Part shown: one piece after another, positions 7,715 to 27,674 of the stretch
Position numbering within the stretch: position 1 is the stretch's first letter
Layout: every line of letters starts with the position of its first letter
DNA from: a virus
Length of the DNA: 27,674 nucleotides
Strand: one strand, 5' to 3'
Virus record (IMG/VR): IMGVR_UViG_3300036761_001675
Span: 1-27,674 of that record
Notes under the pieces: generated by a model
Told to the model about the DNA's origin: nothing
The model's database searches: none
Seen by the model: the letters and a program-made list of their open reading frames with translations, nothing else
Made by a program: the position numbers and the translations under genes

Positions 7715-8190
7715 CGGGCGGCCTCGGCCCATGACGTGAACGGATCGGCGGTCTCGATTGACGCCGATGACACCTTCGAGCGGGCGGCGGCGGTGAGGCC
7801 GTAGTCGTTGAGCATCAGGCGGACGCGGCGCCATGCGTCGGACGCGATCCCGACGGCCGGATGGGCCCGGACCATCATCCCGCCGTGCTCGTTGGTCGTC
7901 TCGAAGGTCGCGCCTGCCTCGCGCGCGATGTCACGAGCGGTGACGTATTCGGCCAGCGCGTCGCAGAGCATCCCGAGCGCGACCCGATCGGCGGTGGTGG
8001 CGACTCCCATGCCTCGGAGGATCGGGACGATGGTCCGCCAGGCCCGAATGGCGACCGGTGAGAGGTACAGCCAGTGCGGTGGGCGGGCGTTCAGCGCCAG
8101 CGGGCGCGGCTTCGGCTCGGCCTTGTTCGCACGGTCGGGACGGGCCGTGTTGCGGAGCACCTTGAGCGCGGTGGGAGCGCGGGCGGTCAT
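7711..8190 (-). CDS. Terminase small subunit, P27 type
   Basis: This 159-residue protein recognises the packaging site and recruits the large subunit. It has the P27-family plan: a basic Pro-rich N-terminus (TARPDRANKAEPKPRP), a PPHWLYLSPVAIRAWRTIVPIL motif, an ALGMLCDALAEYVTARDIAREAG helix and a C-terminal SDAWRRVRLMLNDYGLTAAARSKV segment. The chosen start (8190) overlaps the HNH stop by 4 bases (ATGA); eleven upstream in-frame residues lie inside that gene. It is adjacent to, and coupled with, the large subunit. Confidence 0.92.
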   Translation of the reverse strand: MTARAPTALKVLRNTARPDRANKAEPKPRPLALNARPPHWLYLSPVAIRAWRTIVPILRGMGVATTADRVALGMLCDALAEYVTARDIAREAGATFETTNEHGGMMVRAHPAVGIASDAWRRVRLMLNDYGLTAAARSKVSSASIETADPFTSWAEAAR

Positions 8191-9086
8191 GTGGGGTTTC
8201 CGAATCGCACTGACGGCGGCCACAAAGGGGCGCGCGGGACAGCGAGGGAGGGGTCAGCGCCCCGGTGGACCCCCTCCCCGGGCCCTATGCCCGCTGCGAC
8301 CAGCTCCCAACCGAACGGAAGGCGCTCACCCTTGTCCTCATTGCACATGCGATGGGCAGGACGCAGGTTCTCGGCCAGGTCGCGTCCGCCAGCCGATGCA
8401 GGGAAGACGTGATCGAGCGTCAGTGCCAGCGGATGAGCGATCTCAGGGCCGCGCTCGATGACGCCACCACACAGGTAGCACCGCATCCCGAAGCGCGCCA
8501 AGATCGCAGGACGCATCCGCCTGATCTTGGCTGCTGCACGCCGGCGTCTAACCTCGCCCATTGCCTTCTTGCCAGACTTGCGACGGCAGCGATCTGAGCA
8601 ATAGCGAGCGTGCGGGCGGTGACTCTCGAAGTCCTCATAGCAGACGGCGCACTCCAACGTGAACGGCCCGCCACGCACCTCGTCCTTCCACCACTCGCTC
8701 TTGCAATCATGCGAGCAGAAGCGCTGGCTCCCTGTGCCAGCCCGGAAGACCCGATCACATCGAGCACAGGTGCGCTGTCGGGCAGCCTCTGCCATGATGC
8801 ACATCGCCTCGCGCACAGCGGCCTTTGTTGACCGTTCCTCTTCCCAAGCGGCAAGCCTCGCAGCATGGGCGGTTGCCCGTTCTGCCTGGCGCATGGGCGC
8901 CATCGCATCTAGAGGTCGGCACGCGAGCGAGCAATAGCGCCCGACTACGCTCATGAACGTGCCACCGCACGTCAGGCAGACGCGCTCATGCTTCAGGTGC
9001 GTCGTGTGCCCGAGCCTGCCGCACCGCCTGCAGAGCGACGCCTGCTTGTTGGTCGCGTGCCCGCATCGCTCGCACGTGAGTCTCAT
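8187..9086 (-). CDS. HNH endonuclease with four zinc-binding modules
   Basis: This 299-residue protein strings together four Cys4 modules: C5/C8/C19/C22, C37/C40/C52/C56, C107/C110/C124/C128 and C146/C149/C163/C167. The last three share a CxxC...YCS/FCS..C pattern. A basic linker (MGEVRRRRAAAKIRRMR) leads to a C-terminal HNH domain: CYLCGG at 203-208, LTLDHVFPASAGG with D225-H226, then ENLRPAHRMCNEDKG. It should bind and nick or cut DNA. Phage HNH proteins beside terminase are known to assist cos cleavage with the large subunit. The start at 9086 overlaps the next HNH stop by 4 bases. Alternatively it could be a homing-type nuclease, though it lies between genes rather than in an intron. Confidence 0.9.
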   Translation of the reverse strand: MRLTCERCGHATNKQASLCRRCGRLGHTTHLKHERVCLTCGGTFMSVVGRYCSLACRPLDAMAPMRQAERATAHAARLAAWEEERSTKAAVREAMCIMAEAARQRTCARCDRVFRAGTGSQRFCSHDCKSEWWKDEVRGGPFTLECAVCYEDFESHRPHARYCSDRCRRKSGKKAMGEVRRRRAAAKIRRMRPAILARFGMRCYLCGGVIERGPEIAHPLALTLDHVFPASAGGRDLAENLRPAHRMCNEDKGERLPFGWELVAAGIGPGEGVHRGADPSLAVPRAPLWPPSVRFGNPT

Positions 9087-9394
9087 GACGCCACCGGGGT
9101 ATCGCGCCGCAGGCCCACCGCCGAGTGGCAAGGGCGGCAGAGCCATCGCTTATTGGTGGGGTCGGAGTCGGAACCACCGAGACTGCGCGGGATACGGTGG
9201 TCGCGCTCCAAGCGCTCAATCGAGCCGCACCGCTCGCATCGGGCGCCTGCCAGAGCAGACGCCCGCTCGCGCTGGTGCAGGCTTCCCCCGCCGCGCTGCG
9301 TCGTGGTGGGCTTGTGCTGCTCGCAGTAGCCGCGTGACACGGCGAGACCAGGGCAGCGCGGGCGGAGGCAGGCGGGCAGGGGCGCGGTCGGCAT
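9083..9394 (-). CDS. Small HNH endonuclease
   Basis: This 103-residue HNH nuclease has a short Cys motif (CLRPRCPGLAVSRGYCEQH), then the catalytic fold: RCERCGSIERLERDHRIPRSLGG (split Cys pair and the DH pair), and NKRWLCRPCHSAVG with the second Cys pair. This is the size and layout of terminase-associated phage HNH proteins, which usually sit within a gene or two of the small terminase. The start at 9394 overlaps the preceding stop (TGATG); the longer open frame upstream overlaps that gene and looks non-coding. Its role in cos cleavage is inferred from family and position. Confidence 0.9.
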   Translation of the reverse strand: MPTAPLPACLRPRCPGLAVSRGYCEQHKPTTTQRGGGSLHQRERASALAGARCERCGSIERLERDHRIPRSLGGSDSDPTNKRWLCRPCHSAVGLRRDTPVAS

Positions 9395-9864: not shown

Positions 9865-10734
9865 CTAGACCTGCGTCACGTGATCGGGGTGGCCGGTGAT
9901 CTGCAACGTTACCGTCGCGCTGTTAGGCGTGGGCGGCTCGGGGGCATCCTCCAGCGACACGGCAGAGGCCGCGAGGTAGAGGACGGTGGGACGCTTCACG
10001 GCGTCCGGATAGGGCAGGGCCGTCTCGACGAGTACGGCGCGGTAGCCGGAAACCACGCCCACGAACGGATAGCCGTAGCCGACCTTGGCTGTGGCGATCT
10101 TTGTGCCGCCCGGCGCGTCGAGCAGCGGCGTGTCGGCCGTGATGCGGGCAACCTTCGCGCTGCGCAGGTCGTTGCCGGCGGCATTGATCATCTCGGAGCC
10201 TCCCCTGACGGTGGCGAAGCGATACAAGGCAGCGGCGTCGCCGTGGTAGTAATCGAGGTCGAGCGGGCTGCCGCGGTGCTGCCAGAAGACCCACGTCCGA
10301 GTCGGGGGCGTCGTGCCCCACCGCGCAACCCAGTTCCAGTTCTGCCCGAGCGCCGGGAAGGCGGAGTCGGAGTGATAGAGCCCGATCTCGCGCCCGGTGC
10401 CCTGGACGGCGACAATGAAGGCGCGGGCCTGGGCGGTGGTCATCTCTGGCTTGCCGGACTCGCGCTCCAGGTCGAGCGCCAGTAGGTCTGCCTTGCCCGC
10501 GATGGCGAGGAACGCGGCGGCCTGTGCCGCCCCGTCGCCGTAGATCCCGAAGGCGTAGGCGCCGAGCACGGCGCCGGCCTTGCGGACGTTGGCCGAGTGA
10601 TACGCCCACTTGGCATCAACGCGGGTGCCATAGCAGGCCCGGACGAACGCGAAGTCGCGGCCGGTTAGGGTCGGCGTGGTGCGGTTCGCCCACGAGACGT
10701 CGATGCCGCGGGCCCAGTCGTCGGCGCCGCTCAT
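9865..10734 (-). CDS. Endolysin, GH25 lysozyme with C-terminal SH3-like region
   Basis: This 289-residue protein has an N-terminal GH25 muramidase domain (about 8-185): GIDVSW with Asp12, the catalytic-type ALDLE (Asp88, Glu90), GLYHSD, and a terminal WQH...LDLDYY segment. It cuts the glycan backbone of peptidoglycan. Residues about 192-240 (VARITADTPLLDAP ... GYRAVLVET) look like an SH3b-type wall-binding module. A short Pro-linked tail follows. No signal peptide is seen, so release probably needs the neighbouring holin-like protein. The start at 10734 overlaps the preceding stop by 4 bases (ATGA); the upstream 29 in-frame residues are not supported. Confidence 0.92.
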   Translation of the reverse strand: MSGADDWARGIDVSWANRTTPTLTGRDFAFVRACYGTRVDAKWAYHSANVRKAGAVLGAYAFGIYGDGAAQAAAFLAIAGKADLLALDLERESGKPEMTTAQARAFIVAVQGTGREIGLYHSDSAFPALGQNWNWVARWGTTPPTRTWVFWQHRGSPLDLDYYHGDAAALYRFATVRGGSEMINAAGNDLRSAKVARITADTPLLDAPGGTKIATAKVGYGYPFVGVVSGYRAVLVETALPYPDAVKRPTVLYLAASAVSLEDAPEPPTPNSATVTLQITGHPDHVTQV

Positions 10735-11081
10735 GAGCCGCTCTGGATGATGTGGGAGAACGTGGCGATCAGGGACGCGATCGCCGCGAGGGCCGCCAAG
10801 AGCGAGCCGCCGAGGATCCACTTCACGCTGGCGCCGATCGTCTCGACCTGGACGCGGAAGTCGTGGAGGGTGGCGATCTCGTCAGTCAGGCGCTGGAGAG
10901 CGCCGATGCGAGAGTCCTGCAGAGCGGCGGCCGTGTCATGCCCCGCAAGGCGGGAGTCGAGCGTCCCGTGGTCCCTCCGGTGCTCCTCGACGAACGCTTC
11001 GAGCTTGTCGAGGATGTCGCGGTTCGTAGGCTCCCCGGCGTCGGTGGCGCGACGGTGGAAGGTCACGGATTCAATCGCCAT
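10731..11081 (-). CDS. XhlA-like coiled-coil membrane protein of the lysis cassette
   Basis: This 116-residue protein has a long charged, heptad-like region (about 20-80: RDILDKLEAFVEEHRRDHG, LQDSRIGALQRLTDEI) and one C-terminal membrane helix (about 87-109). That plan matches XhlA-type proteins that act with holin and endolysin in some phages. It is the first gene after the non-coding switch region and is coupled to the lysozyme by ATGA. No convincing ribosome binding site precedes its ATG; the leader just upstream is strongly folded instead. An alternative role is a second holin or spanin-like regulator. Confidence 0.78.
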   Translation of the reverse strand: MAIESVTFHRRATDAGEPTNRDILDKLEAFVEEHRRDHGTLDSRLAGHDTAAALQDSRIGALQRLTDEIATLHDFRVQVETIGASVKWILGGSLLAALAAIASLIATFSHIIQSGS

Positions 11082-15768: not shown

Positions 15769-15962
15769 AGCCCGAGCGGGACCTGCGCCTGTTCCCGAAG
15801 CGCGATCGTCACCGTGACGACGTAGATCGCGGCGGTGCCCGGCCGCAGCCGGATGGCATCGATGGCGAGCACGGCCACGTTCGGTTCGGCGGCGCCCCAC
15901 GCGACGGCCTGCGCGCGGGCGTCGTCCTCCGTCTCGGCGGGGAAGGCGAGGTCGAGTGTCAT
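15765..15962 (-). CDS. Small acidic beta-type protein
   Basis: This 65-residue protein begins MTLDLAFPAETEDDARAQA, then has beta-like strands VAVLAIDAIRL and AIYVVTVTIAL. It is probably a compact alpha/beta protein with no Cys and no membrane span. Its start overlaps the DUF5131 gene's stop by 4 bases. The family is not recognised. Confidence 0.65.
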   Translation of the reverse strand: MTLDLAFPAETEDDARAQAVAWGAAEPNVAVLAIDAIRLRPGTAAIYVVTVTIALREQAQVPLGL

Positions 15963-16792
15963 CGTGGGTACTCTTTCCTTTGCCACAGGTCGTCAGGGAT
16001 GTTGCCCTGCCGCCCGGGCTTAGCGCCGCTGGCCTGCTTGACGAACACGGCCACGCCTGAGGCATCGGCGCGCTCGACGAGGTCGCGGACCCACTCCGGC
16101 TCCATCCACCGCCAGCCCGGGCCGGACTCCCCGCCGACGATCAGCCAGTCGATGCCGGTCAGGTCGAGCGACGGTAGCGGCCCCAACAGCGGCTCGGCGC
16201 TGATGAAGCGCACGGCCGCCGGCGTCGCGCGGAGGGCATCGGCCCGGCCGACGAGGCGATCGTTCTCGATGCTGGTCCCGAGCCAGACGTTCGGGCCACA
16301 TGGCGACCCGGCAGCCCACTCCCGCGCCGCCCGGGCCGCGTAGCTGTTGCGCATCGCCTCAGTCGGACAGGCATCGAACTTCCGGGCGTACTCGCCGTTC
16401 AGCCGGTGTCGCCACGCTATGAAGTCGCGCATCCGCTCCGGTCGCTTCGTGAGCACCTGAAACGTGTGGCGGTCGGCCTCCCGCATCACTTGGCACACCT
16501 GCGAGATGAAGATGTCCGGCACCCGCTCATGGAACAGGTCCGACATCGAGTTGACGAACACCCGGCGGGGCTTCCGCCAGCGCAGGGGGAGGTCCAGCCG
16601 GTCGGGGTGGAGCACGATGTTCGTCGCGGCGTTCTCCGGCGTCCACGGCAGCCCGGGGTAGCCCGGCTTCCCGGCGAGGCGCGTCAGGGCCAGCGTCTCG
16701 GCGTAGCAGTGGGCGCAGCCGGGGGAGACCTTGGAGCAGCCGGTCACGGGATTCCACGTCTCGTTGGTCCAGCCGATCTTCGTGTTGCTCAC
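15959..16792 (-). CDS. Gp37/Gp68-type (DUF5131) protein, radical-SAM-like
   Basis: This 277-residue protein has the family's opening motif (KIGWTNETWNPVTGC) and a Cys cluster, C19-x6-C26-x2-C29 (CSKVSPGCAHCYAE), a likely iron-sulfur ligand set. Further family landmarks are VFVNSMSDLFHE, FQVLTKRPERM, NVWLGTSIEN, RFISAEPLLGPL and DWLIVGGESGPG. The family is common in phages and related to radical-SAM-type proteins, but its reaction is not settled; a DNA or nucleotide repair or modification role has been supposed. The GTG start at 16792 overlaps the previous stop (GTGA) and places the family's N-terminal motif at residue 5. Confidence 0.9.
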   Translation of the reverse strand: MSNTKIGWTNETWNPVTGCSKVSPGCAHCYAETLALTRLAGKPGYPGLPWTPENAATNIVLHPDRLDLPLRWRKPRRVFVNSMSDLFHERVPDIFISQVCQVMREADRHTFQVLTKRPERMRDFIAWRHRLNGEYARKFDACPTEAMRNSYAARAAREWAAGSPCGPNVWLGTSIENDRLVGRADALRATPAAVRFISAEPLLGPLPSLDLTGIDWLIVGGESGPGWRWMEPEWVRDLVERADASGVAVFVKQASGAKPGRQGNIPDDLWQRKEYPR

Positions 16793-17046
16793 TCGTCGCC
16801 TCCATTCCAGGTGACGTACCAGAAGCCGCCGGAGGCCCCGTCCTGTCCGCAGTTGGGACAACGGCCCGACCACGTTGGCTCGTAATAGGACGGCTCACGG
16901 CTGCCGTGGAGCTGGAGGTTGTATCGGACGTGTCGGTGACAGTTGAAGCACCAGCGGGGACGCTCCTCATACTCGGCGTGGAGGATCACCGTGGCGTCGC
17001 TGAAACAGACGGTCAGGCCATCCGGGTAGGCCACGCAGGGGCTCAC
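16789..17046 (-). CDS. Small zinc-ribbon-like protein
   Basis: This 85-residue protein has two CxxC pairs: CFNCHRHVRY and CPNCGQDG, about 25 residues apart, which make a zinc-ribbon-like site. Aromatic residues are frequent (SYYEPTWSG, GFWYVTW). The GTG start at 17046 overlaps the previous stop (GTGA) and excludes a long Arg/Pro-rich extension that is a shadow of the previous gene. It probably binds nucleic acid or protein. It directly precedes, and is coupled to, the DUF5131 gene. Confidence 0.72.
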   Translation of the reverse strand: MSPCVAYPDGLTVCFSDATVILHAEYEERPRWCFNCHRHVRYNLQLHGSREPSYYEPTWSGRCPNCGQDGASGGFWYVTWNGGDE

Positions 17047-17399
17047 AGCGCACCGTCCAACTGGTCGAGGGCGGCGCGTAGAATGAGATAGGCAGGGGGA
17101 TGGTGCTTGCAGGCGCACCGGACAAACGGCCGCGCCGCCTCGGCCACGTCCAGCAGGGCGGGCAGGGCGTTGACGGCTTCGATGATCAGGGTGGCGGTGG
17201 CGACCCTTTGCGGATCCATCTCCCAATGCCCGGGGTCGCCAACCCATGTGCCGTTTGCGGAGTGGACGAACTCCTCACCGGCGAGGCAGTTGCGGAGCGG
17301 CCCGGCGTAGACAGCGACGATGCCGATCCGCTCGTCGAGTCGCCACGGTCCCGGCGTAGCCTCGGCCAGCAGCACCCGGAGGCGTTCGATGGTGGTCAC
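17043..17399 (-). CDS. Ead/Ea22-like phage accessory protein
   Basis: This 118-residue protein begins TTIERLRVLLAEATPGPWR, an N-terminal motif widespread in small phage accessory proteins of the Ead/Ea22 type, followed by a beta-rich middle and ATATLIIEAVNALPALLDV, a typical helix of these proteins. The C-terminus has a CACKHH cluster. The function of the family is not clear. The GTG start at 17399 overlaps the previous stop (GTGA). The huge Arg/Gly-rich extension upstream is read from the alanine-repeat gene in another frame. Confidence 0.75.
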   Translation of the reverse strand: MTTIERLRVLLAEATPGPWRLDERIGIVAVYAGPLRNCLAGEEFVHSANGTWVGDPGHWEMDPQRVATATLIIEAVNALPALLDVAEAARPFVRCACKHHPPAYLILRAALDQLDGAL

Positions 17400-17536
17400 T
17401 TCGGCACCGCCCACACGAGCACGACGGCCAATGCGAACAGCACCACGCCGGCGAGGGCCAGGAGCGTCGAGGCGAGCGACTCGCGGGGCGGCTCGGGTGC
17501 GTCGGGACGCACCGGGCGGGTGTGGGGCCGTCTCAT
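17396..17536 (-). CDS. Micro-membrane protein (46 residues)
   Basis: This short gene encodes a Pro/Arg-rich N-terminus (MRRPHTRPVRPDAPEPP) followed by one hydrophobic helix (about 21-43, STLLALAGVVLFALAVVLVW). Both ends overlap neighbours by 4 bases (ATGA at the start, GTGA at the end), which supports a real gene despite its size. A positive N-terminus predicts a cytoplasmic N-terminus. Function is unknown. Confidence 0.62.
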   Translation of the reverse strand: MRRPHTRPVRPDAPEPPRESLASTLLALAGVVLFALAVVLVWAVPK

Positions 17537-18258
17537 GCGACGAGCCCCAGTCGTTCGCAGAGCCAGCCGGCGTACTTGGCCCCCGCGGCATCCCACGCGG
17601 CATCCCACGCGGCATCCCTCGCGGCAGCCCTCGCGGCAGCCCTCGCGGCCCCCGCGGCATCCCACGCGGCATCCCACGCGGCCCACGCGGCCCACGCGGC
17701 CCCCGCGGCATCCCCCGCGGCATCCCACGCGGCAGCCCACGCGGCATACGCGGCAGCCCTCGCGGCCCCCGCGGCATCCCACGCGGCATCCCTCGCGGCA
17801 GCCCTCGCGGCAGCCAGTTCCTTCGAGGTGGCCTCGCCGTCCGCATAGCAGCGGGCGACGTAGATCACGCACTCCAGCGTCTCGCGTGACGCGGGATCGG
17901 CGTATTGCAGCGCGTCCTCGGCGCAGTCGCAGGCGAACAGGCGGGCGCTCCGCTCGTTCCATGCCTCGATCCGGCGCACCAGGCGACCGCGGCGGAACCC
18001 GATCTTGTCAGGACCGACGATCAGCCCGCGGCTCTCGTCGATCTCGACCGCGTACATCTCGACGTTGAGCCAGTCGAGCAGATGTGCGGCGTCCGTGGCG
18101 TGCAGCACGCGAGGGGTGCACAGATCGGCGGTGGTCAGCGCCTTGCGAGCCCGCTTGCCGACCTCGACCCATTCGCCGGGACCGTCGGCGCTCGGCAGCG
18201 GCCAGCGGAAGCCGTCGTGCGTGGTGCCGTCGGGGCCGGTGAACTTCCATGTGGTCAT
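17533..18258 (-). CDS. Alanine-repeat protein with Imm5-like region
   Basis: This 241-residue protein has a mixed N-terminal half (KFTGPDGTTHDGFRWPLP; DLCTPRVLHATDAAHLLDWL; VEIDESRGLIVGPDKIGFRRG). A helical segment with ARLFACDCAEDALQYADP, ECVIYVARCYADGEAT follows, then about 75 residues of degenerate repeats built from AAWDAAGAAR and AAARDAAWDAA units, ending AKYAGWLCERLGLVA. The segment plus repeat resembles the putative immunity/Imm5-like proteins I recall from phages and actinobacteria; the match is from memory. The repeats should form amphipathic helices packed as a solenoid or coiled coil. The start overlaps the previous stop by 4 bases. Confidence 0.78.
   Translation of the reverse strand: MTTWKFTGPDGTTHDGFRWPLPSADGPGEWVEVGKRARKALTTADLCTPRVLHATDAAHLLDWLNVEMYAVEIDESRGLIVGPDKIGFRRGRLVRRIEAWNERSARLFACDCAEDALQYADPASRETLECVIYVARCYADGEATSKELAAARAAARDAAWDAAGAARAAAYAAWAAAWDAAGDAAGAAWAAWAAWDAAWDAAGAARAAARAAARDAAWDAAWDAAGAKYAGWLCERLGLVA
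17583..17812. repeat. Degenerate GC-rich tandem repeat coding for the alanine-rich helices
   Basis: About 230 bases are built from GCGGCATCCCAC-type 12-base units (encoding Trp-Asp-Ala-Ala on the minus strand), mixed with GCGGCAGCCCTC and GCGGCCCACGC variants. It is coding sequence, not a CRISPR or non-coding array. Unit order is irregular, as expected when repeats expand by slippage and then diverge. Confidence 0.85.
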
Positions 18259-18578
18259 GCCGAAATCCTCCACAGCGTCATCGGCTCCCTCATCCGGGCA
18301 GCGGTGCGCCTTAGTGCGCGCGCGGTGACGCACTGAGTAATCGCCCGCCTACGGAGAGCCAGCGCGCACGCTGCCACCGCCGCGGGGTCCGTTTCCAGCC
18401 GCACGCCGTCGCCATCGGAGACGATGGGCCAGCCCGCCAGCCGCGCCTCCTGGCACGCGGACTGCACGCGGCGGATGCTGCCGTCGAGCCCCCAGAGCGC
18501 GAAGGCGAGGTCGCGCTGGCGCATCGTGTGGCCAGTGAAGGCAAGCGCGTCGACGAGGGCGCGGGCGTCAGGAGTCAT
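18255..18578 (-). CDS. Small winged-helix-like protein
   Basis: This 107-residue protein has an N-terminal pattern typical of a small winged helix: DARALVDALAFTGHTMRQRD, then GLDGSIRRVQSACQEARLAG (recognition-helix-like), then WPIVSDGDGVRLETDP (wing-like hairpin). The C-terminal third is basic and helical (ALALRRRAITQCVTARALRR). It resembles HTH domains used by phage regulators in place of a Cro-type fold. The start at 18578 overlaps the recT stop by 4 bases; the long upstream frame is a recT shadow. The target is unknown. Confidence 0.72.
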   Translation of the reverse strand: MTPDARALVDALAFTGHTMRQRDLAFALWGLDGSIRRVQSACQEARLAGWPIVSDGDGVRLETDPAAVAACALALRRRAITQCVTARALRRTAARMREPMTLWRISA

Positions 18579-21659: not shown

Positions 21660-22228
21660 GACGCCGCGCCCTCCAAACATAACTCGCGTGCGTCGGAAGT
21701 CGCGACGGCGGGGGAGGGCCGGTACGGTTTCTGGGGACGCCAGCCAGCGCGGATGCGCAGGGCGTGCTGATAGCTCATCCGGTGGCGCACGATCACCGGC
21801 CAGATGCCGTCCCGCTCGATCTCGGCGGCGACGGCCTCCGTGTCGAACAGGGTGGGACGCCCGCCTCGGTTCCTGGGGATGCGGGCCATGTTGGCAGCGT
21901 GCGACTCGGCGACCAGGTGCGCGGGGTTCACGCACGCCTTCCGGCCGCAGAGATGGGAAACTTCTTGGCCGTCGACGGCTCTGACCGGGAACCACCCGTT
22001 GTGGTGGGCGAAAATGACCCGGTGGACGTACAGGGGTGCCGGCGACAAGCCGCGGGCCAAGACCTGCCCGTAGCCGTTGGGCAGGACCGAGCCGGTGAAG
22101 ATCAGGCAGTTGCCGTCCGAGACGGACCGACTGATAATAGCGGCCGCTACCTCCGCGAGCCTGCGAGGGGCCGGCCCGTGGGTTGACTTCCGATAATACC
22201 CAGTTCCTGTACTCACAACCTCGCTCAT
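21656..22228 (-). CDS. HNH homing-type endonuclease
   Basis: This 190-residue protein has an HNH domain of the kind found in phage free-standing nucleases: YVHRVIFAHHNGWFP, then VSHLCGRKACVNPAHLVAE (the His-Cys-Cys-Asn-Pro-x-His-Leu signature), then an AANMARIPRNRGGRP basic DNA-binding stretch. The C-terminal part has an HTH-like helix pair (TEAVAAEIERDGIWPVIV, SYQHALRIRAGWRP). It would cut DNA and may be selfish rather than needed by the phage. The start at 22228 overlaps the HTH gene's stop by 4 bases. Its position as second gene of the early operon ensures early expression. Confidence 0.9.
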   Translation of the reverse strand: MSEVVSTGTGYYRKSTHGPAPRRLAEVAAAIISRSVSDGNCLIFTGSVLPNGYGQVLARGLSPAPLYVHRVIFAHHNGWFPVRAVDGQEVSHLCGRKACVNPAHLVAESHAANMARIPRNRGGRPTLFDTEAVAAEIERDGIWPVIVRHRMSYQHALRIRAGWRPQKPYRPSPAVATSDARELCLEGAAS

Positions 22229-22401
22229 GCGACGACCCCCTCGACGGGCCGCCGGTGCTCGCGGCGGTAGCGCTCGACCTCTTCGGGGGAGACGTACCAA
22301 CTGCGGCCCATCTTGTGCGCCCGGAGCGTCCGGTTCTTGATCTGGTGGTGCAGCGTGTTCGGGGAGAGGCCCAGGGAAGCGGCGGCTTCGGGGATCGTCA
22401 T
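22225..22401 (-). CDS. Excisionase/MerR-like helix-turn-helix protein, first early gene
   Basis: This 58-residue protein is the size and pattern of an excisionase-like HTH: TIPEAAASLGLSPNTLHHQI (helix-turn-helix), then AHKMGRSWYVSPEEVERYRR (wing and final helix). It should bind short direct repeats. Its ATG lies 6 bases after the -10 box, so it should be translated from a leaderless mRNA. Two ATGTACC repeats lie inside its own promoter, suggesting autoregulation. No integrase is seen, so an excision role is unsupported; an early regulator is more likely. Confidence 0.85.
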   Translation of the reverse strand: MTIPEAAASLGLSPNTLHHQIKNRTLRAHKMGRSWYVSPEEVERYRREHRRPVEGVVA

Positions 22402-22407
22402 GTGCGG

Positions 22408-22435
22408 AATGTACCACGCGTATGTACCGTGTCAA
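22408..22435 (-). promoter_or_regulatory. Early-operon promoter, predicted leaderless
   Basis: A perfect -35 TTGACA (22435-22430) is followed after 16 bases by TACATT (22413-22408, four of six matches to TATAAT). The start codon of the first gene follows at 22401-22399, so transcription should begin at or within a base or two of the ATG. This is the best promoter match I found in the window. Confidence 0.75.
22409..22428. promoter_or_regulatory. Direct repeats within the early promoter
   Basis: ATGTACC occurs at 22409-22415 and 22422-22428, 13 bases apart, with ACGCGT between. The repeats cover the -10 box and spacer. An HTH protein bound here would block RNA polymerase. The adjacent excisionase-like gene is the obvious candidate; binding is inferred. 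Confidence 0.55.
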
Positions 22436-22444
22436 CCCCCAATG

Positions 22445-22453
22445 TGCTAGCAT
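22445..22453 (+). promoter_or_regulatory. Possible extended -10 of the glycosyltransferase promoter
   Basis: TGCTAGCAT reads as an extended -10 (TG, one base, TAGCAT). It lies 26 bases before the plus-strand start codon, with AGGGAGG ribosome binding site at 22466-22472 between. No good -35 is seen at the usual distance, so the match is weak. It would be divergent from the early promoter. Confidence 0.4.
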
Positions 22454-22479
22454 CGCATCCTCGGCAGGGAGGTCGGAGC

Positions 22480-23448
22480 ATGATGGGCAGTCGAAACGGC
22501 CCCGCCACCGGACGATGGTCCCTCGACCGGGTGCTCATGGCGGCGGCCCTCGGGCTCGGCATCGCCATCGCCCTCGCGCAGATGCTCGGGCGGACGCCGC
22601 TCGCGTTCGATGCGGGCGCCTACTGGGCGGCCCAGCCGGGTGCCCTGTACCAGAGTGACTGGGGGCTGTCATCCGGCCGGTCGCCGTTCCTCTACTCGCC
22701 CGCGTTCGCCGATGCGCTGATCCCGTTCCGCCTCCTCCCTGAGCGCCTCTTCACCGGGCTCTGGGAACTCGGGCTCGTCGCCGTGCTCGTCGTGACGATC
22801 CGCGGCTGGGCCCTGCTCGCACTCGTGGCCGCGGCTCCCTTCCTCGCGTTCGGCATCGGCCAGCCACTCACGCTCATCGCCTCGGACATCGCCCACGGGA
22901 ACATCCACGTCCTGCTCGGCGCGGTGGCCGTGTTCGGCCTGCGCTGGCCGGCGCTCTGGTCGATCGTCCTACTCTCGAAGGTGACGCCGGGCGTCGGCCT
23001 CGTCTGGTTCGTGGCCCGCCGGGAGTGGCGCAACCTCGGCATCGCACTCGGGGTGACGGCCGCCATCGCGGCGGTATCGTTCGCCTACCGCTCTTCGGAC
23101 TGGGCGGACTGGTTCGCGTTTCTCTTCGCCAGCCGCGATCACGTGTTCCCGCTGTGGACGGTGCCGATCCCCCTCCCGGTGCGCCTCGCGATGAGCGCGG
23201 CGCTCGTGTGGTGGGGCGGCCGGACGGATCGCCCGTGGACCGTGCCGATCGCCGTCGGCTGGGCGATCCCGGTCCCGTACCCGACGATGCTGGCGGCGAT
23301 GGTGTGCGCCCTGGCCTGCGTTCAGCCCGCCGCCCGGCCCGACGATCGCTCTGGTGGCCATCTCAGATCACGAATACGGCCTGGAACGAGGCGCCGCCAC
23401 CGGCCGGGGGAGAATACGTCTTGGCCTCCCAGAACCGTATCTCGCTGA
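22480..23448 (+). CDS. GT87-type (DUF2029) membrane glycosyltransferase
   Basis: This 322-residue multi-pass membrane protein is the only plus-strand gene. It has about eight hydrophobic segments (first about 17-36). The first outer loop has the family pattern AFDAGAYWAA (catalytic-type Asp44) and LYQSDWG, then FLYSPAFADALIPFRLLP, GNIHVLLGAVAVFGL, and LLSKVTPGVGLVWFVARREWR. GT87 enzymes transfer sugars from polyprenyl-phosphate donors onto envelope glycans. The start at 22480 (ATGATG) follows AGGGAGG by 7 bases. The last 35 residues are Arg-rich and antisense to the discoidin gene. It may remodel the host surface, blocking superinfection. Host-derived cargo is inferred. Confidence 0.85.
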   Translation: MMGSRNGPATGRWSLDRVLMAAALGLGIAIALAQMLGRTPLAFDAGAYWAAQPGALYQSDWGLSSGRSPFLYSPAFADALIPFRLLPERLFTGLWELGLVAVLVVTIRGWALLALVAAAPFLAFGIGQPLTLIASDIAHGNIHVLLGAVAVFGLRWPALWSIVLLSKVTPGVGLVWFVARREWRNLGIALGVTAAIAAVSFAYRSSDWADWFAFLFASRDHVFPLWTVPIPLPVRLAMSAALVWWGGRTDRPWTVPIAVGWAIPVPYPTMLAAMVCALACVQPAARPDDRSGGHLRSRIRPGTRRRHRPGENTSWPPRTVSR

Positions 23449-24271
23449 CGGAGACCACGATGCCCGCGTAGACGCTGGTCACGTCCATCTTGTGGTAGCG
23501 GTACGCCGTCGTGTTGGAGATGGCGAACGTCTGCCAGGTGTTCACGTTGGCCCCGTTTCCGGTGTAGAGCGTGTCCCAGTTGGTGCCGTCGTTCGACGCC
23601 TGAACGGTGAAGGCGTTGGGCCGTTCGGACGAAACCGCGAGGAACATGAACGACGTCAGGATGCCGGTGAGCCCCGCACCGAGGTCGTACTTCCACCAGC
23701 CCGTCGTCACGTTGTCGGGAGTGGCCCAGCGGGAGCCGTCGGACCAGTCGGCTGCATAGTCATCCAGGTAGGAAGCGCGATCAGCCGACGACGTGATCGT
23801 TCCCTGCCCGATCAGTGAATAGTCCGACAGGGTGACGCCCGTATCCTCCGTGAGCTCGTACAGCCCGATCTCGCTGATCGAGATGACGACGCCAGCCCAC
23901 ATCCGCGCCCCATGGAACTTGTAGTAACGGAACGCCGTGTTGTTCTGGAACGTGTAGTACTGCCAGTTCTGGTTGTTTGCTCCCTCGCCCTGGTAGAGCG
24001 TCGTCCAGGTGCTGTCGTCATTCGACCCGAAGAGCTGGAAACCCCTTGTCGCTTCGCTCGATTTGAGCACATAGCCGAGCTTCTGGGCGACCTTGGTGAC
24101 GCCGACACCGAGGTCATACTTCCACCAGCCGGGCCACGCGCTGTCATTGGTCGCCCAGCGGGTGCTCTCGTTGGCATCGACGGCCTTGCTCGCCGCATAC
24201 GTCGTCCCGCCACGGTCAGTGGATGCAGAGGCGGTCCCGCCCGTCAGGAAGTTGGCCCCGTAGGTGGCCAT
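23363..24271 (-). CDS. Tail-fibre protein with two discoidin-like (F5/8 type C) domains
   Basis: This 302-residue protein is two copies of a beta-barrel domain of about 140 residues. Each has the same landmarks: an RWAT segment, WWKYDLG, an (F/A) plus SNDDSTW or SNDGTNW motif, TLY, a YYTF or FAIS strand, YRYYKFHG or YRYHKMDV, and ISEIGLYE or VSEIRFWE near the end. Discoidin domains bind carbohydrate or other surface ligands. It is the last tail gene before the early region, so a receptor-binding or adhesion role is likely. The start overlaps the fibre gene's stop (TGATG). The 3' end overlaps the convergent glycosyltransferase gene by 86 bases. Confidence 0.88.
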   Translation of the reverse strand: MATYGANFLTGGTASASTDRGGTTYAASKAVDANESTRWATNDSAWPGWWKYDLGVGVTKVAQKLGYVLKSSEATRGFQLFGSNDDSTWTTLYQGEGANNQNWQYYTFQNNTAFRYYKFHGARMWAGVVISISEIGLYELTEDTGVTLSDYSLIGQGTITSSADRASYLDDYAADWSDGSRWATPDNVTTGWWKYDLGAGLTGILTSFMFLAVSSERPNAFTVQASNDGTNWDTLYTGNGANVNTWQTFAISNTTAYRYHKMDVTSVYAGIVVSVSEIRFWEAKTYSPPAGGGASFQAVFVI

Positions 24272-25503
24272 CAGACGCGCGTCACTTTGAGCGCGAGCGT
24301 CACCCGCGTGATGGTCGTGCAGGAGTCGACATTGAACCGGAGGATGTCTCCGTCCGCAATGTCGTCCGTGGTCCAGTCCGTGATCGACGTGTCGGTGGCG
24401 TTCGTGGCCGTTGTGATCGTCGGCTCCTTGCCGGAGCACATTGAGTCGGCATCGGTCGGCGGGAAGTTGCCGAGGGTATCCTTCCAGATGTCGATCACGA
24501 TCGACCCCGACTGGTCGGCGAGCAGCGTCCAGGCATTGACGACGCAGGCGAAGTCCACCAGGACATCACCCTTGATACCCGTGGCGATCGCAGAGCCGCC
24601 CCCGTCGATCACGACGTTGATGGTTCCGACCTGACCGCCACCCGCCTCGGTCCGAAACTCGACCCCTCCCGTCCCGTTTGGCGCGAGGACCTTCGTGGTG
24701 ACCGTCTCGGTGGTCGGCAGGTCGAGGATGTCCGCAACACCCCCGGAGATGTCGGTCCAGATCCCTGGTGCCCCGGCGGTGGTGCAGATATAGACGTGGC
24801 CGATCGCCGTGATCACGAAGTCGCCGACTGCGAAGGTGCCCGTCGTGGGTGCTACGCTCGCGGTCCCGCCGACGTAGCGCGTCGCCGCGATCGCACCCGT
24901 GAGCGCGAGCGGAAGGCCGAGCCCGCCGTGGGCATGGTCCCGGTGGGCCGCGAGGGCCACTGAGCCGACCGCCGCTACCGCTGCCACGTCCGTCGGAGCC
25001 GTGACGTCGAACGTCACGATCGTCGCGTCCGAACGGATGGCGGTAGCAGCGGCACCGATCGCGGCCGCAGTTCCGTGGACGATCGCCGGCGTCGCGGCCG
25101 AGCTCATGCCGTCGGCGCCTGTCGCGCCCGTCGCGCCGACGGAGAGGAGCTGGCCCTGATCGTTGTACACGCGCCAGCCGTCGTCCGCGTAGACGGCGAA
25201 GCCGCCCGCGAGAATGGAGATGGGCGGCAGGATTGCGTGCGCCGCGGCCGTGCCCTTGACGTTGAGCCGGGCGGTCACGGTTCCGGCGGTCATGTTCGCC
25301 AGGTGGATCGTCTTGACGATGGCCGCGGTCGAGGCCGGGACGGTGTAGAGGGTCCCGACCGACGAGGGGAGCTGCCCCTGCGCGAGCACCTTGAACGCGT
25401 CGGCTCCCGCCGCGATCTCGTCGCCGCTGATCGTGTAGGTGATCGCGGTCGCGGAGCCCGCGACTCCCGTGATCGTGTCGCCGGTGGCGAGGGCGATGGA
25501 CAT
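24271..25503 (-). CDS. Tail-fibre-like protein
   Basis: This 410-residue protein is Ala/Thr/Gly/Val-rich with a modular beta-structure. The N-terminal 120 residues form a compact beta-domain with LYTVPASTAAIVKTIHLAN and ADDGWRVYNDQG. A short collagen-like GATGATGADG follows. The middle has AAHRDHAHGG (an HxH motif like those that bind metal in phage fibres) and VYICTTAGAPGIWTDISGG. The C-terminal 120 residues (VGTINVVIDGGGSAIATGIKGD cut short here; VDFACVVNAWTLLADQSG; IVIDIWKDT) look like a terminal fibre or receptor domain. The start follows GGAGG by 7 bases. It lies between two other tail-tip genes. Confidence 0.85.
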   Translation of the reverse strand: MSIALATGDTITGVAGSATAITYTISGDEIAAGADAFKVLAQGQLPSSVGTLYTVPASTAAIVKTIHLANMTAGTVTARLNVKGTAAAHAILPPISILAGGFAVYADDGWRVYNDQGQLLSVGATGATGADGMSSAATPAIVHGTAAAIGAAATAIRSDATIVTFDVTAPTDVAAVAAVGSVALAAHRDHAHGGLGLPLALTGAIAATRYVGGTASVAPTTGTFAVGDFVITAIGHVYICTTAGAPGIWTDISGGVADILDLPTTETVTTKVLAPNGTGGVEFRTEAGGGQVGTINVVIDGGGSAIATGIKGDVLVDFACVVNAWTLLADQSGSIVIDIWKDTLGNFPPTDADSMCSGKEPTITTATNATDTSITDWTTDDIADGDILRFNVDSCTTITRVTLALKVTRV

Positions 25504-25506
25504 TGA

Positions 25507-27674
25507 TCAGCCTCCGAAGAAGGTAAACGTGCGGAGGGCGTGGGAATGATCCCCCGCCGCGGCGGTGCTCGATGTCGCGCCGAGCGCCAGGTGCGCCGAC
25601 CCGGAGTGCGTCGCATCCACCGTCGGGCTGGCCCACGTCCCGCCCAGTTCCCCGCCCGGCGTGGTGCCCACGACGATCTCCGCGGAGAGCGCGCCGCTGG
25701 CGGTGCCGACGAGGTAGTCGGCCGTGGTCGGCGCGTGCCCGGCGCTCGCGTGTGATGCAAGCTCCGCATCGGTCGCGAGGCCCAGCGCGTCGTGGGTCGC
25801 GAGGTTAGGGTGGGTGCCGCCAGGGGCGACGGCCAGCCGGAGCCGCTGCGAACTGATCTCACCGACGATCGTCTTCGTGAGCGTCGTGTCGGTCTCAAGC
25901 TTGTCCGCGAGGTAGCCTGCCGTGTCCCCGGGCCGGACCGCGACGAGGCCGGAGGATGCTCCTCCTCCGCCGCCACCACTGCCGCCCCCTCCGCCGAAAG
26001 TGGTGCCGAGCCCGCCGCCCCTGCCGGCGATCGCGTCGACCTTCCGTTGCAGCCGGAGCGATGCCTCCATCTGGATGCTGTTCGCGTCGAGGTTGACGGT
26101 GAAGCCGCCCTCCGTCTTCTCGAGCTCTGTCGCGACGATCCGGACGACCTCGAGCGTTCCGTCCCCGTCCGTGTCGATCGAGATCCAGTCGCCGTCCCGG
26201 TAGTGCTCGAACGGCTCGTAGTGGCCCTCGGCCCGGGTGCCGTGCGTGACGTCGAGATCGATCGCCTTGGTCTCTAGCTCGGCGACCGCGAGCGCGATCT
26301 CGCCAGCGCGCTGGATCGTCGTCGCATCGTCGGAAGTCGTCATCTCGACGAACCCTTCGCGCCGACCGACCCGGAGATCCGTTTCCGCGGCGGGGTTCGC
26401 GACCTCGATCACGCGGCCGCCGGCACCCTCCACGAGGACGCGCGTCGCCCTCGCCGACGAGTGCGCTGCCCGCGAAACGTCACCGACGAAGTGCCGGCCC
26501 TTCCGGAAGATGACCCTCTCTTCGAAGTGACGCGACGCATCGACGAACGCGCGGAGCTTGAGCTCCGGCGTCATCCCACCCTCGAGGCCGAGCGAGACCA
26601 GGTGCCGCCAGACGTCGAGGAGGCTGGTCCCGATGTGGAACGTGAGCTCGAACGTATCCGGCCACGGCTGGTTGCCCGAGTCGACCGTCCCGCTGAAGTC
26701 ATAGGTCAGCCAAGGGAGCGCGCCTCGCGCCTGCGCCTGGTCGATTAGCGTCTTGAGGATCCCGCCGAATGTCGAACCCGCGAAGACGGCTTCGGTCGAG
26801 CCGGTCGACGGGATGAACAGTTGCATCCCGATCCAGTCGACGTTCGAGCCCGACGTGGCGTACTGATCGCCTGAATCACCGACCGGCGGCGTCGTGAACG
26901 TGGCGATCTCCGCGGTCATCCCGATGCCCGCGTAGTCTGATCGCTCGTACCATCCGGCGGGGGGCGTGATGAACGTCGCCGCGGCCGCCGCCGCGAATGA
27001 CAGGAGGACACCGTCCACGACGCCGACGTTGACCGACGGGAGCTTGATCGCCGTTCCGGTTCCGACGGCCTCCGCGATGGCGTACTGCGTGACGTCCGCG
27101 GTCGCGTTCGCCAGGACGACCGCCTGGCCGATCGCCGCGGTCGCGACTGTCCATGTGAACCGCCACGTCGGAGGCTCGTCGGCGCCGAGACGCCTCATGA
27201 ACGTCGTCTGCCGGATTGACCCGTTCGCGGTGTCCCGGATCCGTGCCCAGCCAGCTTGGGAAGACGGGCGGAGGATGGCCGACGTCATCACGACGATCGC
27301 GATATCGGAGGCGATCGCCCCGGCCGGCTTCGGGACGTCTAGGTAGGTCGCCCCGGCGCCGTTGCCGTGAACGGTCGCCGATCGAAAGATCCCCGCCGCC
27401 GTCGGCCAGATCGGCGGATAGACGCGGGCCCGCTCGAGGCCCGCGAGTGCGCCGCGCCCGGGGAGCTTCCGATCCTCGCCGCTCTGCTCGGCCATCGAGA
27501 CGTCGACCTGTTCCGGCTCTTCGATCCAGTAGGCGAAGCGGTAGACTCCGCCGACCTTGATCTTCACCAGATTGCCGTCCGCGAGGATCTCGGCCGTCGC
27601 CTTCGGGTCGTGACGGTTCAGCGTGAAGCGGCCGGCACCCGCCTCGGAAAGCTGCGTCCCGAAGCCGACGTCGC
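25507..27674 (-). CDS. Gp37-like siphovirus tail protein with inserted beta-domain (5' partial)
   Basis: At least 721 residues are visible; the frame is open to the window edge, so the true N-terminus is missing. The visible start (GFGTQLSEAGAGRFTLNRHD, then KVGGVYRFAYWIEEPEQV) matches Gp37-like tail proteins, and the RGALAGLERARVYPP motif continues the same fold. About 205 residues (around 26800-27414) then interrupt it with a repeat-rich beta-sandwich pattern (AGWARIRDT, PPTWRFTWT, PPAGWYERSD). The family fold resumes at FAGSTFGGILKTLIDQA and runs to YEPFEHYRDGDWISID. A Gly-rich linker and a fibre-like C-terminus with GDHSHALRT follow. It should sit at the tail tip. Confidence 0.86.
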   Translation of the reverse strand, partial: DVGFGTQLSEAGAGRFTLNRHDPKATAEILADGNLVKIKVGGVYRFAYWIEEPEQVDVSMAEQSGEDRKLPGRGALAGLERARVYPPIWPTAAGIFRSATVHGNGAGATYLDVPKPAGAIASDIAIVVMTSAILRPSSQAGWARIRDTANGSIRQTTFMRRLGADEPPTWRFTWTVATAAIGQAVVLANATADVTQYAIAEAVGTGTAIKLPSVNVGVVDGVLLSFAAAAAATFITPPAGWYERSDYAGIGMTAEIATFTTPPVGDSGDQYATSGSNVDWIGMQLFIPSTGSTEAVFAGSTFGGILKTLIDQAQARGALPWLTYDFSGTVDSGNQPWPDTFELTFHIGTSLLDVWRHLVSLGLEGGMTPELKLRAFVDASRHFEERVIFRKGRHFVGDVSRAAHSSARATRVLVEGAGGRVIEVANPAAETDLRVGRREGFVEMTTSDDATTIQRAGEIALAVAELETKAIDLDVTHGTRAEGHYEPFEHYRDGDWISIDTDGDGTLEVVRIVATELEKTEGGFTVNLDANSIQMEASLRLQRKVDAIAGRGGGLGTTFGGGGGSGGGGGGASSGLVAVRPGDTAGYLADKLETDTTLTKTIVGEISSQRLRLAVAPGGTHPNLATHDALGLATDAELASHASAGHAPTTADYLVGTASGALSAEIVVGTTPGGELGGTWASPTVDATHSGSAHLALGATSSTAAAGDHSHALRTFTFFGG

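What the first reader, a model, noticed from the sequence alone, without database searches (positions are those of the whole stretch)
22480..23448. Lone plus-strand GT87 glycosyltransferase between tail fibres and early genes
This is the only gene on the plus strand. It has its own ribosome binding site and overlaps the fibre gene tail-to-tail by 86 bases. A multi-pass envelope glycosyltransferase is not a virion or replication protein, so it looks like lysogenic-conversion or surface-remodelling cargo. Being next to two sugar-binding-type tail genes suggests that the phage may alter the same glycans it binds. This pairing may be the most unusual biology here.
Basis: partly seen in the sequence, partly recalled or inferred. 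Interest (0 to 1): 0.68.

Follow-up and report, generated by a model that had tools for sequence, protein, structure and literature searches.

The report
Phage-borne host-derived envelope glycosyltransferase
A bacterial virus carries a membrane enzyme, taken from Chloroflexota-type bacteria, that adds sugars to the cell envelope; related viruses have repeatedly put different sugar-modifying enzymes in the same spot beside the tail-fibre gene, which suggests a slot for changing the surface that phages attach to.

Summary
Window 22480-23448(+) encodes a GT87 (GT-C) membrane glycosyltransferase: PF09594 E=1e-14, best solved fold match the mycobacterial mannosyltransferase PimE (Z 16.7), PimE's D58/Y62/Y92/K195 kept. 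It lies tail-to-tail with the fibre gene, overlapping it by 86 bp; its last ~28 residues are read-through into the fibre.

The position is not unique. Nine phage records (window included; TerL at least 61% identical) cover this junction. Five carry a glycan-type enzyme there on the opposite strand: GT87 in three, a distant GT-C relative in one, a hexapeptide acetyltransferase in one; four carry none. A more distant phage has a GT87 in the same slot. A tree places these GT87s at separate points among Chloroflexota chromosomal GT87s, so they were captured more than once.

Best reading: a moron slot for envelope-glycan modification, beside the receptor-binding genes and divergent from the early operon, most likely expressed in the lysogen to alter the receptor and block superinfection. 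Capture and location are shown; substrate, expression and effect on adsorption are inferred. It works like P22/Sf gtr and D3/Sf6 oac, but with another enzyme family, another genetic position and apparently another host phylum.

The parts
22480..23448 (+). GT87-family GT-C membrane glycosyltransferase gene (322 aa); catalytic residues D44, Y48, Y72, K167
   Evidence: PF09594 E=1e-14; invariant residues; PimE best profile and fold match; GC3 0.91
23363..23448 (.). 86-bp tail-to-tail overlap; GT87 reading frame here is read-through (not conserved, disordered), fibre frame keeps its codon signature
22466..22473 (+). AGGGAGGT ribosome-binding site of the GT87 gene
   Evidence: sequence
22445..22453 (+). 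possible extended -10 (TG-C-TAGCAT) for a plus-strand promoter; no good -35; weak
   Evidence: reading of the sequence; not reported by the consensus scan
22408..22435 (-). sigma-70-like promoter TTGACA-16-TACATT (TG before -10) for the early operon, divergent from GT87; contains TGTACC at 22410-22415 and 22424-22429, possible operator
   Evidence: sequence
22225..22401 (-). excisionase-family helix-turn-helix protein, first gene of the early operon
   Evidence: TIGR01764 E=5e-9; PHROG excisionase E=2e-7
23363..24439 (-). last tail gene: fibre with two F5/8 type C (discoidin, galactose-binding-like) domains; true start probably near 24271
   Evidence: PF22633 E=9e-21, two stretches
24271..25503 (-). 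second fibre / virion structural gene
   Evidence: phrog_35197, phrog_10330 virion structural
25507..27672 (-). tail protein, cut by the end of the window
   Evidence: homologues G043 27608-29689 and G042 23333-25555

Best explanation
The gene is a moron: a GT87 glycosyltransferase captured from a Chloroflexota-type chromosome and kept in a phage slot between the last tail-fibre gene and the early operon, transcribed opposite to both. Like PimE, the enzyme should take a sugar (mannose or similar) from a polyprenyl-phosphate donor in the membrane and add it to an envelope glycan or glycolipid on the outer face. The most likely role is lysogenic conversion: made in the lysogen, it changes the surface glycan that this phage and its relatives bind with the adjacent sugar-binding fibres, so superinfecting phages or released sibling virions adsorb poorly. 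Shown here: family, fold, active site, host origin, repeated independent capture, same slot in several phages, alternative glycan-type enzyme in the same slot. Inferred: expression in lysogeny, exact donor and acceptor, effect on adsorption.
For: Family and active site: PF09594; profile match only to PimE in the PDB, with D44/Y48/Y72/K167 on PimE D58/Y62/Y92/K195, residues that PMC12041525 describes as the catalytic base and its partner (D58, Y62) and as phosphate-contacting (Y92, K195). Model pTM 0.74, PimE best by VIA Z 16.7 over 259 residues. Slot: gene maps of related phages show opposite-strand genes at the same junction: G013 HTH + GT87-like (1.5e-15), G021 GT87-like (4e-12), G017 XRE + small membrane protein + GT-C-like, G043 XRE + hexapeptide acetyltransferase, G001 XRE-like + GT87. 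0 of 84 other phage loci (1.23 Mb) hold a GT87. Origin: the all-phyla genome scan gave 14 hits, 13 Chloroflexota by record title, chromosomal in those inspected. Tree: window with a host gene (99/96), G021 with another host gene (100/98), G013 apart. Lysogeny: integrase in carriers G043, G017, G013, G001; HTH/XRE-type regulators upstream of the enzyme in those four carriers.
Against: In the window no repressor precedes the gene and no integrase was found, so lysogenic expression is not shown for this phage. The plus-strand promoter is weak. PimE W319/H322 are not clearly kept. The enzyme needs a host acceptor and donor, both unknown. The host is inferred from the captured genes; the lineage's TerL has only 39-47% matches in Chloroflexota genomes.
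Confidence: 0.6

Rival explanations
1. The enzyme acts during lytic infection, not lysogeny: it is made early and rebuilds the envelope so that the infected cell or its debris no longer binds progeny virions.
For: The window lacks a repressor upstream and an integrase; G021 also has the enzyme alone.
Against: Orientation is opposite to both early and late operons; four carriers have an HTH/XRE-type regulator upstream on the same strand and an integrase.
Confidence: 0.17
2. A passenger host gene without function for the phage: a transduced fragment trapped at the late/early junction, now decaying.
For: C-terminal read-through into the fibre frame; no such gene in four of nine relatives.
Against: Active-site residues and codon signature intact; same function class kept at the same slot in five of nine relatives by separate captures; 0 of 84 control loci.
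Confidence: 0.13
3. The enzyme glycosylates a phage component (virion protein) rather than the host envelope.
For: It lies beside two tail genes.
Against: PimE works in the membrane on a lipid acceptor with a lipid-linked donor (PMC12041525); virion proteins are made in the cytoplasm (general knowledge).
Confidence: 0.04
4. Assembly chimera: a bacterial fragment joined to a phage contig.
For: Closest homologues are bacterial; no match in 50,697 phage records.
Against: Independent contigs show the same class of gene in the same slot and orientation; overlap with the fibre gene without a break.
Confidence: 0.02

Closest known systems
PimE (GT87 mannosyltransferase of mycobacteria, PDB 9DM5)
   Same: Fold (Z 16.7), catalytic Asp/Tyr, donor-phosphate Tyr/Lys positions
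   Different: Only 19-22% identity over the structural alignment; far below the PimE equivalog cut-off (25 against 413 bits); W319/H322 not clearly kept; phage-borne, Chloroflexota type
gtrABC serotype-conversion operons (P22, epsilon34, Shigella Sf phages)
   Same: Phage-encoded membrane glycosyltransferase expected to use a lipid-linked sugar and modify a surface glycan that phages bind; exchanged between phages
   Different: Single gene, no gtrA/gtrB beside it; different enzyme family; lies at the fibre/early-operon junction, away from the integrase in relatives, whereas gtr lies at attP-int in glucosylating Shigella phages (PMC3636060)
oac O-acetyltransferases of phages D3 and Sf6
   Same: Relative G043 has an acetyltransferase in the same slot; acetylation versus glycosylation as alternative receptor changes
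   Different: The G043 enzyme is a hexapeptide-repeat type; its substrate is unknown
P22-like 'ant moron' (between late operon and tailspike gene, PMC2629481)
   Same: A variable cargo spot beside the receptor-binding gene with regulators and a superinfection-exclusion gene
   Different: There upstream of the tailspike in the late operon; here downstream of the fibre, opposite strand, divergent from the early operon

Membership tests
GT87 (PF09594) | Pfam domain above the curated cut-off | tested here: met
   55.4 bits against 25
GT87 (PF09594) | GT-C fold like PimE | tested here: met
   AF2 pTM 0.74; PimE best by VIA, Z 16.7, rmsd 4.6, 259 residues; Foldseek E only 2.4e-3
GT87 (PF09594) | Catalytic Asp with partner Tyr, and phosphate-contacting Tyr and Lys | tested here: met
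   D44, Y48, Y72, K167, invariant in 20 sequences; PimE equivalents essential or phosphate-contacting
GT87 (PF09594) | C-terminal Trp/His pair (PimE W319, H322) | tested here: inconclusive
   Outside the confident alignment; Tyr instead of Trp in the window, Trp in many host copies
GT87 (PF09594) | Polyprenyl-phosphate sugar donor | not testable with these tools
   Needs biochemistry
PimE equivalog (NF009915) | Score above the equivalog cut-off | tested here: not met
   25.3 against 413 bits
gtrABC-type conversion operon | gtrA flippase and gtrB beside the glycosyltransferase | tested here: not met
   GT87 is the only convincing plus-strand gene; neighbours are fibre and HTH/HNH genes
gtrABC-type conversion operon | Location at attP-int | tested here: inconclusive
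   No integrase in the window fragment; in G043, G017, G013 and G001 the integrase lies far from the slot
Moron / lysogenic-conversion gene | Present or absent between conserved genes in related phages | tested here: met
   Five of nine carry a glycan-type enzyme in the slot, four do not
Moron / lysogenic-conversion gene | Own promoter, expressed in the lysogen | tested here: inconclusive
   Own RBS; only a weak -10 on the plus strand; no expression data
Moron / lysogenic-conversion gene | Temperate carrier | tested here: inconclusive
   Window: excisionase-like HTH but no integrase; carriers G043, G017, G013, G001 have a PF00589 integrase

The most novel reading that the evidence does not exclude
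A dedicated receptor-editing slot: in this uncultured phage lineage the position next to the fibre gene is a plug-in site through which phages repeatedly take up members of the host's own multicopy GT87 arsenal (or an acetyltransferase), and the enzyme is matched to the fibre so that each phage edits the glycan it binds.
Probability: 0.3. Interest if true: 0.75.

Novelty: new variant of a known kind. Interest (0 to 1): 0.56.

Why it matters
Lysogenic conversion by glycan enzymes is known mainly from phages of enterics and Pseudomonas. Here the same strategy appears in phages tied to uncultured Chloroflexota, with the PimE-type GT87 family, for which I found no phage example in PHROGs, the phage records or the paper search. 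The repeated capture of different enzymes at one slot beside the fibre gene makes receptor binding and receptor change testable as a linked pair, and gives a handle on the host of a phage group for which no close relative was found among the sequenced phage records searched.

Tried and rejected
PHROGs, tblastn against 50,697 phage records and BFVD gave no relative or no meaningful match. A family search with PF09594 alone missed three slot genes; a profile built from 42 Chloroflexota ORFs found two of them, and an alignment of host homologues tied the third to GT87 (hhalign probability 96.8). YqaJ as a bait for more junctions brought mostly unrelated phages; used as the negative control. The long tail gene as bait gave few relatives. 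The structure of the G017 protein from a single sequence was poor (pLDDT 50) and was not used. Serine recombinase search empty. Plus-strand ORFs at 17100, 18626, 20679 and 3705 rejected as shadow frames of minus-strand genes. TerL searches in Chloroflexota genomes found only distant hits. The search of G017's protein in the phylum of G058 found nothing, but had no positive control. The idea that the slot is attP is not supported: integrases lie elsewhere in the relatives.

Full report
Observation. The window is a 27,674-base virus record with head genes at the left (capsid, protease, portal, TerL), early genes (RecT, YqaJ/RecE-like nuclease, Dam-type methylase, DUF5131) and tail genes at the right, all on the minus strand. 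Between the last tail gene and the early genes stands one plus-strand gene, 22480-23448, with its own RBS. It carries PF09594 (GT87) at 1e-14. Its codon-position GC (0.70/0.55/0.91) is that of a real gene. The overlap with the fibre ORF is 86 bp as stated. In that overlap the fibre frame keeps a high third-position GC (0.79) and the GT87 frame does not (0.54), the model is disordered there, and host relatives have no such conserved tail. So the enzyme ends functionally at about residue 285-294 and the rest is read-through.

What it is. Against solved structures, a profile of the gene and its host relatives matches only PimE (E=1.3e-4). The alignment puts window D44, Y48, Y72 and K167 on PimE D58, Y62, Y92 and K195 (my residue count on the alignment). 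PMC12041525 reports D58 as the catalytic base, Y62 as its essential partner, and K195 and Y92 as contacts of the donor phosphate. All four are invariant in 20 sequences. The AlphaFold2 model (pLDDT 77, pTM 0.74) has PimE as its best match (VIA Z 16.7, rmsd 4.6, 259 residues), followed by other GT-C enzymes such as GPI mannosyltransferase I, ALG3, ALG6 and ArnT. Foldseek alone is weaker (E=2.4e-3). It is therefore a GT-C enzyme of family GT87, not PimE itself (25 against 413 bits).

Same slot in other phages. TerL relatives were collected and long records fetched and mapped. Nine records cover the tail/early junction and have TerL at least 61% identical to the window (the window included). Five have a glycan-type enzyme there on the strand opposite to the tail genes: the window (GT87); G013 (HTH then GT87-like, 25 bp overlap with the fibre ORF); G021 (GT87-like alone); G017 (XRE regulator, small membrane/zinc-ribbon protein, then a multi-pass protein overlapping the fibre ORF by 77 bp; overlaps); and G043, the closest long relative (portal 78%, TerL 72%, capsid 59%), with an XRE regulator and a hexapeptide acetyltransferase (PF00132). 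Four (G014, G030, G042, G570) have none. A more distant phage, G001 (TerL 25%), has a GT87 in the same place behind a small membrane protein and an XRE-like ORF. A profile from 42 Chloroflexota ORFs gives 2e-74 (window), 4e-56 (G001), 1.5e-15 (G013) and 4e-12 (G021), and no other GT87 hit in these phage records. The G017 protein is not found by it, but has homologues in 9 of 177 genomes of one bacterial class (best 2e-45), and their alignment matches the GT87 profile at 96.8%. As a control, 84 other phage loci (1.23 Mb) have no GT87; that set was drawn with YqaJ and tail baits, and a few of its loci come from records of this same lineage.

Origin. An all-phyla genome scan returned 14 relatives, 13 labelled Chloroflexota, often several copies per genome. 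The loci inspected look chromosomal: a glycan-biosynthesis cluster, a locus beside a dnaX-like gene, and a contig with several GT87 genes. The closest gene found is 57% identical. In the tree the window groups with that host gene (99/96), G021 with another host gene (100/98), G013 stands apart, and G001 is near the window with weaker support (84/86). The phage label needs four changes, three forced by well-supported branches. So the slot was filled several times from the host pool. The host assignment of the phage rests on these captured genes; TerL itself has only distant matches in Chloroflexota genomes.

How it most likely works. The gene is divergent from an early operon with a good promoter (TTGACA-16-TACATT) headed by an excisionase-type HTH protein. 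In four other carriers (G043, G017, G013, G001) an HTH/XRE-type regulator stands first on the enzyme's strand, as expected of a repressor followed by cargo (the HTH call is weak in G013 and frame-broken in G001), and the same four have integrases. This is the arrangement of a lysogeny operon, so I infer expression in the lysogen. The adjacent fibre has two discoidin (sugar-binding type) domains. The simplest mechanism is receptor change: the enzyme adds a sugar, the acetyltransferase of G043 would add an acetyl group, and in both cases the surface no longer fits the fibre. That glycosylation and acetylation of O-antigen by P22, Sf phages and D3 do this is reviewed in PMC11436027. For the window phage itself neither lysogeny nor expression is shown.

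Comparison. The strategy is known: gtrABC and oac. The differences are the enzyme family, the absence of gtrA/gtrB, and the place: in glucosylating Shigella phages gtr lies at attP-int (PMC3636060), here at the fibre/early junction and away from the integrase of the relatives. The closest positional parallel is the P22 'ant moron' beside the tailspike (PMC2629481), which contains a superinfection-exclusion gene. I therefore call it a new variant of a known kind.

Limits. Records are metagenome fragments; the window lacks part of its tail module. The sample is nine junctions. Gene calls in relatives come from a simple codon-signature caller, and E-values from small local sets are relative to those sets. 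Whether enzyme and fibre types vary together could not be tested.

Noticed in passing
window 17533-18333 (-): Alanine-rich repeat protein (DAAWDAAGAARAA...), 12-bp tandem unit x 21 at 17580-17812, near RecT; a similar Ala-rich repeat protein lies beside YqaJ in the distant phage L002 4681-5589.
   Followed up: partly
window 15959-16873 (-): DUF5131 (PF07505) at 6e-82, a conserved protein of unknown function.
   Followed up: no
window 9865-10821 (-): GH25 endolysin lies between the early genes and the terminase, not after the tail genes.
   Followed up: no
window 8187-9146 (-): HNH endonuclease directly before the terminase genes, as in G017 21825-22652.
   Followed up: no
G001 29366-29701 (-), i.e. 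L002 about 8164-8499: The XRE-like regulator upstream of GT87 seems split between two frames; could be a real break or a sequencing error.
   Followed up: no
G012 21996-22685 (-): Hexapeptide-repeat matches below the cut-off beside TerL, outside the slot.
   Followed up: no
L097 1-3186 (host genome G135): Three neighbouring GT87-family genes in one Chloroflexota contig, one of them the closest host relative of the phage gene.
   Followed up: partly
G570, 64,518 bases: The record holds capsid, protease and tail-type genes twice, so it may be an over-extended circular assembly or two joined phages.
   Followed up: no
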